DNA of 64,000 nt from Eremothecium cymbalariae DBVPG#7215 (Eukaryota > Ascomycota > Saccharomycetes > Saccharomycetales > Saccharomycetaceae), in the NCBI RefSeq assembly GCF_000235365.1, contig NC_016450.1, positions 1,240,001 through 1,304,000 on the forward strand, written 5' to 3'. The notes below the pieces were generated by a model, which worked only from the letters and a program-made list of their open reading frames with translations, made no database searches and was not told where the DNA came from. Positions 11,058 to 35,515 of this stretch are shown piece after piece. A program made the position numbers and the translations under genes. How positions within the stretch are numbered: the first letter of the stretch is position 1; each line of letters starts with the position of its first letter.

Positions 11058-13390
11058 TCAGGCGCGGTTAAACAGGTATATATAGCCATTTTTTTCAATC
11101 TCTACTAGATTTTCAATACTGTCTGCCATCACAAGTTTCTCGTCATTGTAGAGAACCCATTTGGAACCCCCATCGATTTCCTTCTTGATAAAAGCAACGT
11201 AGTGGCCGCTATTGATTGAGTTACCTTTGTGACAGATAACAGCTGTGAGACGATATTCAGGGAAATTGTCAACGAAACCAACATTCTTAAGAGCAGAAGA
11301 AACATTTCCCTTTGCTTCTTCATTTAATTCATCCTCAATCTTACCATCATCATCCAGGTTATTGAAAACCCATTCGACACTACGTGAAACGTCACCGTTA
11401 TTTAAAACTAAACCCTTGCGACATAAATTTTCGTCCAAGCCCATGGTAACCATATTCGCCAATGCTTCAGAATCTACGCTGAACTTTCTCGACCTTTTGG
11501 CAGTAGAAAAAATTGGCTGCGAGTTTAGTTCAGGATCCTCCATATGTTCAAAAATCCAATTCAACGAAGCCTCTACATTGTTATTGCCTGTAGCGTACAA
11601 AGCCCGTAAAGCCGCATTTCTAGAAAATCCCATTCCCACGATTGAAGCAACCTTCTCCTCATCTGCTTGAAAGACTCCAGCCGCTTCTTCATCTTCAGAG
11701 GAATATTCTTCGGAAAACTCTCTCTCAGGTGCTTTATATTTTTCCAAGCTCAACAGAACTTCGTCTCGGATACCAGGAACAATTAACGTGCTGTTAGTCT
11801 TTACGGGAGCCCAATTGGACCACTCAATTCTAGTTGGGTTAAGGATTAATGTAGAAGGTGCAGATTTGAGCTTTGAGCTTTTAAGAATAATTGTATTTTC
11901 CTTACATTTCGAACACTGAATGTCTAACGATTCACCGTTGAAGGTAGTCATCAAGACGCTCCAACAAATCTTGAGTTTGCTCATCTTTTAATAATGGAAC
12001 CCTGGAGAGTTTCAGCAATTTGGGAGGTATACTTACAGAACCCACATTTTGAACACTCCAATTTATCTTCGACGATAAACCTAATAACATCGTTCGGGTT
12101 TTTGTTGCCCACTCCAAAGATTTTTTTATCCAGTTTATCAATGAAATATGTCAGAAATTCCATTGCATCTTGTTGTCTGGGTGAACTAAATTCTTCATGA
12201 CCTTCTCCGACACATTTTTTAAGACTGGAGGGTTTAATTCCATGCTGATAACTCTCGGGATTCAACTTAAATGCATTGCGCAATTTAATCAGTTGACATT
12301 TCAAATTTGTAGAAGGATAAACAACATCTAATGGGAACTCTTTCAGTGATTCCAATGTCCAGCCTATGACACCGCCATTGAATAACACTTGAAGTATCGA
12401 GTTCATATAGCAAGAATTACCCAAATTTATTAACCCACAACCGTATTCTTTAGATGAGTTCAAATGTTTTAAACGGTTACCATCCGCATTGACCATTTGA
12501 AAATCCCAATTAGAGTTTTGTTCTACTTGTAATTCAACCAAAGTCTTTTCTTTAGCTACCCGATGGTCTAAAGAAATGCCATATTTAGTCAACAGATTTG
12601 ACAAACGTGACTGCTCCTCAAACCTTACTTCATCATTACATGCATAACAGTAAACATCACTAGATTCACTGGACAACGACCCAAGTTTTACAGCCAAAGG
12701 ATGGCTGTTATCCGAACTTTGATAATGCAACAATGCGTGCGAATTACCATCTATTCCAAATTGTTCTCTACCACACCCAAGATGACCGCAATGTAAACAC
12801 AACCACAGATTACTATCCAGACTACACTGACCACAAGTATCCCCAGTCAATGTTATATTCTCAGGTTCAACAAAGTCGTTTATATGTTTGCAAGGATTGA
12901 TCTCTAATTGCCAGCTGGTAGCCATGTCCTGAAATCCAGAGGACTGTGCCCTAATGATTTGTTCTACCTTGTTAACAACAGCAGGATCTCCTCCTCCATT
13001 TTGAGCGCTGTTGCATATTTCACTGTGCTTACCTTCCTTAACTTGAATAAGGGCCCAGATGGTTTCGTACAACTCATCTTCCGTTCGATCATGTACTTCT
13101 AACTTTAACTTCTTCTCCTGCGCACCTTCGGATGGTCTTGATCTTTCAACTTTATACATGTTTAAGTAAATGTCATGGGAGATACCTAAGGTGCTGCGAA
13201 CCACATTTTGATGCAAATCTATGTGATCACAGCAGAAGCTTTGAAAACATAACAGGCAAGTGTTCAACTGGTGTTTTGGCTCCTTTTCATCTGCACTTAC
13301 CAAAGGGTTCAACATGGTTTCAAAGCAGTATCCACAGTCATCTTTGTACATGGTATTTGGAATGGAAGCATTCTTTAATACGTCTGCCAT
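11058..13390 (-). CDS. UBP14: Ubiquitin-specific protease Ubp14, frame broken twice by +1 shifts
   Basis: Deubiquitinase of the Ubp14/USP5 group, which disassembles free ubiquitin chains. The first frame (11981-13390, 469 aa) has the zinc-finger UBP domain (about residues 165-245) and the catalytic Cys box LGNSCYMNS near 327. The last frame (11058-11984) has two UBA domains, each with an MGF/MGL core, and the catalytic His box SGHYVAF. Together they approach the 781 aa of S. cerevisiae Ubp14. Between them about 19 family-like residues (VPLLKDEQTQDLLERLDDY) lie in the third frame. Two one-base skips, at the GGG read from 12002-12000 and the CC read from 11944-11943, would give a continuous protein. 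Both halves look well conserved, so decay is not obvious; assembly error, recoding and recent inactivation all remain possible. UBP14, TSC3, AKL1, ORC2 is the S. cerevisiae order. Confidence 0.9.
11943..12002 (-). other. Double +1 frameshift segment inside UBP14
   Basis: On the minus strand, codon phase is 1 (mod 3) before 12002, 0 between the two sites, and 2 after 11943. Both changes are in the same direction, each equivalent to one surplus base. The 57-nt segment between them encodes 19 residues in the third frame. A single -1 shift would also link the outer frames but would replace the family-like residues with an unrelated stretch. Confidence 0.8.
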
Positions 13391-28103: not shown

Positions 28104-28431
28104 CCGTTGTTTTTCTTTTGTAGTCTTGTAGGCCGTTATCGCCGTCTTCCGTTGTCCGTTTTCCGACTAATTATGATGATACCTTGCAAACAACAACAAT
28201 GAATTTCTTCAACCGAAAATTGCATGTGGATGCTATTTGACAGCTTTTTAACCCTGAATTAGGTCGGAGGAGCAGGAGTGAGGGACGGTGGATGCGGGCA
28301 CACGGGTCACGTGCTTTGGGTTCTTGGTATATAATGCAGGGTCTGCGTAGGGTGTGGTGCGCTATTTTTCACGGAGCGGCGTGCTCGCTGCTACATCACA
28401 CAGACATAGGTAGACGTCAGGTAGACATCAG

Positions 28432-33735: not shown

Positions 33736-35515
33736 TCAATTATCCTTCTTCAAATCATCCTTCAAAACATCTGGTTTCAAAGTAGGAAACAACAAGACTT
33801 CTCTAATAGTATTTGAGTCCGTCAAGAACATAGCTAATCTATCAATCCCACAACCCCAACCACCAGTTGGTGGCAAACCGTATTCTAAGGCGTTGCAGAA
33901 GGTTTCATCAATCAATTGGACTTCATCATCACCTTGGTCCTTTTGCCTCGCTTGTTCTTCAAAACGAGCCCTTTGGTCAAATGGATCGTTTAACTCAGTG
34001 TAGGCATTACATATTTCTTTTGTAGCTACAAACACTTCGAAACGTTCACAAAGACCTGGTTGATCTCTAGAGTACTTGGCTAGTGGCGACATCATTTGTG
34101 GGTGGCCAAAAATGAATGTTGGATTGATACAAGTGTCTTCTAATTCGCCAACCAATTTGTCTAACATACGAGCGTTAGTCAAAGGTGGCGGACATTCCAT
34201 ATTATTGTCTGCTAAAACCTTCTTCAAAAATTCCCCAGTTTCAGCTGTGTGAAGCTGATCACCTGGTGGGAAAGTAACTTTAAACCTCTGTTCCAATTCT
34301 TCAATCATATTAACCCTCTTCCATGGTCTGGCGAAATCAATTTCATAACATTTTTCAGCGTCTAGCGGATCTGGATGGAAATTGATTTTGTAATCACCAG
34401 TGATTTCCTTAACCATCTCCGAGAATAGCAATTCAGTCATGTCCATTAAATCATAGACATCAGCATAAGCTTGGTAAAACTCGCAGGTAGTAAATTCTGG
34501 ATTGTGAGTCATGTCAATACCTTCATTTCTAAATTGTCTGCCAATTTCATAGACCCTATCCATACCACCTACAACCAACTGTTTCAAAAACAATTCAGGG
34601 GCAATTCTCATGAACATTTTCATGTCCAGATCATTATGATGGGTCACAAATGGTTTGGCAGTAGCACCACCTGCAATTACATTCATCATTGGTGTTTCAA
34701 CTTCAATGAAGTTCCTGTTGTCCAAAAAACTTTCTAATATAGGAAATTATCTTGGATCTAGTGATGAAACGACCTCTAGCATCCTTGTTCATGATTAAAT
34801 CCAGGTATCGCTTTCTATACCTGGTTTCTTGATCTTTGAAACCGAAATGATCAGCTGGTAGCATATGCAAACATGGTGTCAATAATTGTACACGAGAAAC
34901 AAAGACAGAAATTTCACCTTCACCACCTTTCTTTGGCTGTGTTCTGCCAACATAACCTTCAACACCAACGATATCACCTCTCTTTAATATACTGTGATCT
35001 TCTTCATAAGCCCCCTCTGAATGATAGTCCTGCAACTGGGACATTAACTGAACTTCAACACCGTCACCGTGCAAGACATAGAACTTCAACTTAGATCCAG
35101 ATTCTCTCTTAGCGTGAATTCTACCAGCAATAGAAACCCTTTCCTCTGGTAAAGTCTGCCCGCGAGTCAATGACGCATATTTCTCCAAAAAATCTGGTAA
35201 AGAGATAGAAACATGAAACTTATGTGGGTATGGATTTGGAGCATGGGTTGATCTCAATTCTTGGATTTGACGAGATCTTACCTCAAAGTACTGAGATGGA
35301 TCTAAATCACTCAAACCATCAGAAGCTGGTTTCTTTGGTTCTGGCTTTGGTTTGGCAGTGGCCTTTTTGGCAGCCTTCTTGGCTTCGACTTGCCTCTGCT
35401 TTATACGTTTTTTTAATTCAGACTTAGAAACCATCTCACCGGTTACCTCATCTAAATGCAAATTGGCCACATTTTCAGTAACTTGTCCCACAGTACCTTC
35501 CTGAGACATGATCAA
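33736..35515 (-). CDS. KRS1: Cytosolic lysyl-tRNA synthetase, frame broken by one +1 shift
   Basis: Class II synthetase that charges tRNA-Lys. The first frame (34703-35515) has the Lys-rich N-terminal extension (residues about 30-65) and the OB-fold anticodon-binding domain ([20 protein letters not shown]); the second (33736-34725) has the catalytic core, with motif 2 ([20 protein letters not shown]) and motif 3 ([14 protein letters not shown]). Together they make about 591 aa, the S. cerevisiae length. The break falls in motif 1 at a run of six T on the sense strand (34724-34729): five T would give [13 protein letters not shown] without interruption. KRS1 is essential in S. cerevisiae and both halves are highly conserved, so a functional product is expected. 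Assembly error is most likely. Matches YDR037W. Confidence 0.93.
34724..34729 (-). other. +1 frameshift site in KRS1 at a six-T run
   Basis: On the minus strand the codon phase changes by one base between AAG TTT and TTG GAC. One T is surplus for a continuous frame. Continuing without the shift ends at TGA after eight more codons. Confidence 0.85.

What the first reader, a model, noticed from the sequence alone, without database searches (positions are those of the whole stretch)
11943..12002. UBP14 is read in three frames, with two +1 shifts 57 nt apart
Seen: the Cys-box half, a 19-residue family-like segment and the His-box half lie in three successive frames. Each shift equals one surplus base, in GGG (12000-12002) and CC (11943-11944). 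Both outer parts keep every catalytic element, so there is no sign of long decay. The second site has CTT followed by CAA in the incoming frame; CTT is the codon on which Ty1-type +1 slippage occurs, though no Ty1-like CTTAGGC is present. Explanations in order of my belief: two sequence errors, a recent double mutation, programmed recoding.
Basis: partly seen in the sequence, partly recalled or inferred. Interest (0 to 1): 0.75.

Follow-up and report, generated by a model that had tools for sequence, protein, structure and literature searches.

The report
UBP14 frameshifts: probable assembly errors
A housekeeping yeast gene appears broken into three reading frames, but the same pyrosequenced genome also breaks essential genes in this way, so the breaks are most likely sequencing errors rather than a new way of reading a gene.

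Summary
UBP14 (minus strand, 13390-11058) is read in three successive frames. A frameshift-aware alignment against 116 family members puts one surplus base each at 12000-12002 (GGG) and 11943-11944 (CC). The 19 residues between are family-like: 30.8 bits, reached by 0 of 20000 shuffles.

The genome fits Eremothecium cymbalariae, assembled from 454 reads with gaps closed by primer walking and PCR. Frame breaks recur in this assembly: a scan of the surrounding 244 kb found 4 split loci (about 140 ORFs there). Two are lysyl-tRNA synthetase, in this window (T6), and glutamyl-tRNA synthetase (A5), essential genes by general knowledge. Breaks go both ways, 5 surplus and 5 missing. EST3 and OAZ1, real recoding cases, keep known sites here; UBP14 has no known heptamer. 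CTT slippage would give Leu where 50 of 53 close homologues have Phe and none Leu.

Best reading: two sequence errors in a locally weak stretch (0.83). Short G/C runs and 57-nt clustering are atypical for 454, so recent real mutation stays possible (0.12); programmed recoding is unlikely (0.03).

The parts
11981..13390 (-). UBP14 N-terminal reading frame (variant zf-UBP, zf-UBP, Cys box GLINLGNSCYMNS, first half of UCH); family-like up to 12002
12000..12002 (-). site 1: GGG, one surplus G (CTC CAG G.GT TCC); the family reads ...LQ|VPL...
11944..12000 (-). middle frame, 19 codons VPLLKDEQTQDLLERLDDY, family-like
11943..11944 (-). site 2: CC, one surplus C (GAC TAC C.TT CAA); the family reads ...Y|F...
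11058..11942 (-). UBP14 C-terminal reading frame (second half of UCH with His box, two UBA_7 stretches)
33736..35515 (-). control in the same window: lysyl-tRNA synthetase gene broken into two frames
34724..34729 (-). control break site: TTTTTT run in the lysyl-tRNA synthetase gene, where the frame shifts by one surplus base

Best explanation
UBP14 is an ordinary, intact ubiquitin protease gene in the living fungus. The two surplus bases are errors of the published sequence, which was assembled from 454 pyrosequencing reads with gaps closed by primer walking and PCR. The 57-nt clustering suggests a short stretch of low coverage or a single-read patch at a contig join. Shown: frame breaks recur in this assembly and hit genes known to be essential in other fungi. 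Inferred: that these two breaks have the same origin, and that the stretch was weakly covered.
For: In 244 kb around the gene a coding scan found 4 frame-split loci (the stretch has about 140 non-overlapping ORFs of 100 aa or more, the halves counted, or 100 by coding score): UBP14, lysyl-tRNA synthetase (T6), glutamyl-tRNA synthetase (A5) and an M20 peptidase (near a short T run). Genome-wide 3 of 15 UCH loci are broken (merged by eye): UBP14, a UBP10-like gene (nearest run A7) and a UBP1-like gene twice (nearest runs A5 and A7). Two of about 91 kinase loci are broken (merged by eye): one near TTT and a GCN2-like one near A runs. Directions are mixed: of the 10 events seen, 5 surplus and 5 missing. 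Apart from the two shifts UBP14 shows no decay: its C-part identity to E. gossypii is 0.56, against 0.55 between E. sinecaudum and E. gossypii. A 454 assembly of S. arboricolus at about 49x had more than 700 ORFs with putative frameshifts, predominantly in homopolymers, and far fewer after correction with a second technology (PMC3599269, passages). UBP14 is not among the eight A. gossypii genes reported as translated across frameshifts (PMC3737163 section 9 part 1).
Against: Both UBP14 sites are very short G/C runs (GGG, CC), whereas most other breaks lie at or near A/T runs of 5 to 7. If five events are thrown at random on the region's coding DNA, two fall within 58 nt with P = 0.0067, so independent random errors do not explain them and a local cause must be supposed. 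About 89 of 91 kinase loci show no break in the matched part, so errors are not everywhere. No reads could be examined.
Confidence: 0.83

Rival explanations
1. A recent real double mutation: the sequenced strain carries a dead or truncated UBP14 with two one-base insertions. The gene is dispensable in S. cerevisiae (recalled).
For: The sites are not long homopolymers as most other breaks are. All other features are intact, which fits very recent loss.
Against: Two lesions 57 nt apart and none elsewhere in 2.3 kb is odd for a decaying gene. The same assembly breaks genes that should not be lost, so broken frames there are poor evidence of loss.
Confidence: 0.12
2. Programmed recoding: ribosomes shift +1 twice within 57 nt to make full-length Ubp14.
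For: A. gossypii, a sister species, has eight genes listed as translated across frameshifts, seven of them +1, four of which have S. cerevisiae counterparts that also shift. Both UBP14 shifts are +1. Site 2 holds a CTT codon. CAG GGT is rarer in frame than expected in 94 long ORFs, 9 against 25.0; CAG GGG is low too (4 against 11.1) and many pairs were not corrected for.
Against: Neither site is one of the known yeast heptamers (CUU_A.GG_C, CUU_A.GU_U, GCG_A.GU_U, GCG_U.GA_C; PMC12661321 passages). EST3 (CTT AGT TGA) and OAZ1 (GCG TGA C) in this genome keep theirs. CTT CAA is not avoided: 19 seen, 19.6 expected. CTT slippage would give Leu where 50 of 53 close homologues have Phe and none has Leu; in all 116, 72 have Phe and 3 Leu. 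At about 40% for the Ty1 heptamer or 60% for ABP140 in context, two sites would give some 16-36% full-length protein at best (my arithmetic). Relatives' proteins are full-length, though protein records do not show how they were annotated.
Confidence: 0.03

Closest known systems
454 homopolymer/indel frameshifts in draft yeast genomes (e.g. S. arboricolus before correction, PMC3599269, passages)
   Same: Indels that split intact genes into abutting ORFs; here essential genes too
   Different: The UBP14 sites are GGG and CC, not long A/T runs, and they are clustered
Programmed +1 frameshifting of EST3, ABP140, OAZ1, YFS1, LLP1 and Ty1/Ty3 (PMC12661321, PMC12719033, passages)
   Same: A +1 shift would join the family-like frames; site 2 contains a CTT codon
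   Different: No known heptamer, two sites rather than one, residue conservation contradicts CTT slippage; UBP14 not mentioned in the main text of either paper
UBP14 / USP5 (isopeptidase T) family
   Same: zf-UBP_var, zf-UBP, UCH with Cys and His boxes, UBA domains, in order
   Different: Only the frame interruptions

Membership tests
UBP14/USP5 deubiquitinases | variant zf-UBP + zf-UBP + UCH + two UBA | tested here: met
   across the frames (two UBA_7 stretches)
UBP14/USP5 deubiquitinases | close relatives annotated UBP14 | tested here: met
   the best hits, E. gossypii FDAG1 FAGR023Cp 62% and E. sinecaudum HGR023Cp 60%, bear systematic names; K. lactis and some Lachancea hits are named UBP14
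Programmed +1 frameshift genes | known slippery heptamer at the shift | tested here: not met
   the sites are CAG_G.GT_T and TAC_C.TT_C or CTT_C.AA_C
Programmed +1 frameshift genes | shift conserved in related species | tested here: inconclusive
   relatives are full-length proteins; their DNA was not read. PMC3737163 section 9 part 1 does not list the A. gossypii gene
Programmed +1 frameshift genes | shift efficiency measured in vivo | not testable with these tools
   needs a reporter or ribosome profiling
454/assembly indel error | breaks occur in genes that cannot be lost | tested here: met
   lysyl- and glutamyl-tRNA synthetases (essentiality from general knowledge)
454/assembly indel error | break in a long homopolymer (typical, not obligatory) | tested here: not met
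   GGG and CC; other breaks in this genome are mostly at or near A5-A7 or T6
454/assembly indel error | absent from independent reads | not testable with these tools
   no reads held; no second E. cymbalariae copy found

The most novel reading that the evidence does not exclude
E. cymbalariae makes full-length Ubp14 by two consecutive +1 ribosomal shifts at new kinds of site (CAG_G.GT_T, then TAC_C.TT_C), 57 nt apart, a double-recoded cellular gene that would tie deubiquitinase output to translation fidelity.
Probability: 0.03. Interest if true: 0.85.

Novelty: not a real feature. Interest (0 to 1): 0.1.

Why it matters
If error, it matters only for annotation: frame breaks in this assembly cannot be read as gene loss or recoding without resequencing, and several genes (UBP14, lysyl- and glutamyl-tRNA synthetases, UBP1-like, UBP10-like, GCN2-like) should be checked. 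If the double shift were real, it would be an unusual recoding case, but the evidence does not favour that.

Tried and rejected
Rejected: an intron. The profile alignment runs straight through both sites with one extra base each. Rejected: a single shift joining the outer frames. It loses about 48 bits of family match, and the other two frames of the middle part score -34.7 and -31.8 bits. Rejected as main reading: old pseudogene. C-part conservation equals that of intact orthologues.

Led nowhere: a search of plasmid records with the C part, no match; a first pass with codon scores, which gave the same four loci as the later Markov scan; one Pfam scan of a piece cut too short (protein 5); the N part of the DUG1-like gene, which had no Pfam match, so its identity rests on the C part and recall; tRNA search of the window, 0 genes; a literature search for UBP14 with frameshift (8 papers, 7 listed, only titles and abstract openings seen), none of whose listed titles or openings is about recoding of the gene.

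Limits. Names from recall: KRS1, GUS1, DUG1, UBP10, UBP1, SCY1, GCN2 for the control genes; the strain name DBVPG#7215; that tRNA synthetases are essential; that UBP14 is dispensable in S. cerevisiae. Merging of the family-search rows into 15 UCH and about 91 kinase loci was done by eye; at first I counted 92 and missed the GCN2-like break, found on recheck. Partial kinase matches were not checked for hidden breaks, so 2 is a lower bound. The 244-kb scan needs coding score on both sides of a break and will miss breaks near gene ends. The homopolymer given for each control break is the nearest run by eye; only the lysyl-tRNA synthetase break was aligned to solved relatives on both sides.

Full report
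What is there. The minus strand 13390-11058 encodes a UBP14/USP5-type deubiquitinase. The first frame (469 aa) carries the variant and the standard UBP zinc fingers and UCH positions 1-138; the last frame carries UCH 131-254 and UBA matches in two stretches. The best database relatives are E. gossypii FDAG1 (62%) and E. sinecaudum (60%), and the best solved relative is ubiquitin carboxyl-terminal hydrolase 5, entry 3ihp. The frame-0 read-through ends in LQGSIIKR-stop, the middle frame reads VPLLKDEQTQDLLERLDDY, and the C frame resumes with FNGESLDIQC.

Is it real at the sequence level. A profile from 116 homologues was aligned to the DNA with frameshifts allowed. It placed two surplus bases, at 12001..11998 and 11943..11940, at penalties of 8, 20 and 40 bits; at 60 bits it used one missing base instead. 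The middle segment scores 30.8 bits against a shuffle mean of -16.4, with 0 of 20000 shuffles reaching it.

Which residues the family demands. At the column after DDY, 50 of 53 close homologues (P0002-P0056 in the aligned set) have Phe and none has Leu; in all 116 aligned, 72 have Phe and 3 Leu. A surplus C gives TAC-TTC, Tyr-Phe. Before site 1, Gln is kept in 50 of 53. Both sites are best described as one base too many, not as slippage on CTT. A shift with TAC in the P site would also give Phe, but is not among the known sites.

Where the genome comes from. The window is part of an 8-contig, 9,669,424-base genome. That fits E. cymbalariae (strain DBVPG#7215, name recalled), 9.7 Mb in eight chromosomes, sequenced by 454 at 40x, 209 primary contigs, gaps closed by fosmid primer walking and PCR products (PMC3276169, abstract and passages).

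How often frames break in this assembly. In C2:1,100,001-1,344,000 a Markov coding scan found four frame-split loci and 100 coding ORFs; by length alone there are 140 non-overlapping ORFs of 100 aa or more, the halves counted. One locus is lysyl-tRNA synthetase, in the same window at 35515-33736. Its two halves match the same solved chain (7f6w) up to residue 201 and from residue 193, and the frame changes in a TTTTTT run at 34729-34724. Another is glutamyl-tRNA synthetase, whose catalytic domain splits at profile positions 54/49, by AAAAA. The third is an M20 peptidase resembling DUG1; Pfam confirms its C part only. Elsewhere, 3 of 15 UCH loci are broken: UBP14, a UBP10-like gene by AAAAAAA, and a UBP1-like gene twice, by AAAAA and AAAAAAA, 530 nt apart. 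Two of about 91 kinase loci are broken: one in a TTTATGATTTGATTT stretch, and a GCN2-like gene by A runs, which I noticed only on recheck. Of ten events, five are surplus and five missing. Cytosolic aminoacyl-tRNA synthetases should not be dispensable (general knowledge), so errors must occur. An independent 454 yeast assembly had more than 700 ORFs with putative frameshifts before correction (PMC3599269, passages). On the other side, about 89 of 91 kinase loci show no break in the matched part.

What real recoding looks like here. EST3 of this genome reads TAT ATA CTT AGT TGA, and OAZ1 reads TTA GCG TGA CAC. These are the known sites CUU_A.GU_U and GCG_U.GA_C (PMC12661321, passages). UBP14 has neither. 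A survey of yeast pseudogenes likewise set aside the orthologues of EST3, OAZ1 and ABP140 as bearing the programmed shift (PMC2876123, passages). A. gossypii has eight genes reported as translated across frameshifts (PMC3737163 section 9, part 1); UBP14 is not one of them. CTT CAA is used as often as expected (19 against 19.6); CAG GGT is used less than expected (9 against 25.0), a weak point in favour of recoding at site 1, though CAG GGG is also low and many pairs were not corrected for.

Conservation. Identity of the C part to E. gossypii is 0.56, as between E. sinecaudum and E. gossypii (0.55). To ten further homologues it is within 0.03 of the E. gossypii protein's own identity to them. 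There is no decay.

What does not fit. GGG and CC are not typical 454 error sites, and two of five regional events within 58 nt has probability 0.0067 if placed at random. I therefore suppose a locally weak patch; this is inference. A recent real double mutation stays at 0.12 and programmed recoding at 0.03.

Verdict. Observation confirmed; most likely an artefact of the assembly. Interest low.

Noticed in passing
window 33736-35515 (-): Lysyl-tRNA synthetase gene broken into two frames at a T6 run (34729-34724); an essential gene by general knowledge, so very likely a sequence error.
   Followed up: yes
L018:4764-6889 (-), C2:1164764-1166889: Glutamyl-tRNA synthetase gene broken into two frames by an A5 run.
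   Followed up: yes
C2:1138760-1140321 (-), L021/L020: DUG1-like M20 peptidase gene broken into two frames near a short T run; Pfam confirms only the C part.
   Followed up: partly
L009:4277-6621 (-): UBP10-like deubiquitinase in two frames, break by an A7 run.
   Followed up: partly
L010:6055-8286 (+): UBP1-like deubiquitinase in three frames, breaks by A5 and A7 runs about 530 nt apart, a second doubly broken UBP gene.
   Followed up: partly
L031:2-1382 (-), C2:440902-442282: Kinase-like gene (perhaps SCY1) split into two frames just before a TGA.
   Followed up: partly
L032, C3:333795-334600 (+): GCN2-like kinase gene split into two frames within its kinase domain, near A runs.
   Followed up: partly
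L030:1155-1800 (+) and L029: EST3 and OAZ1 of this genome keep canonical +1 sites (CTT AGT TGA; GCG TGA C).
   Followed up: yes
94 long ORFs of the fetched stretches: The codon pair CAG GGT is seen 9 times against 25.0 expected; CTT AGG (3 against 8.0) and CTT AGT (4 against 11.2) are also low.
   Followed up: partly
window 28169-28259 (+): snR47 C/D-box snoRNA.
   Followed up: no
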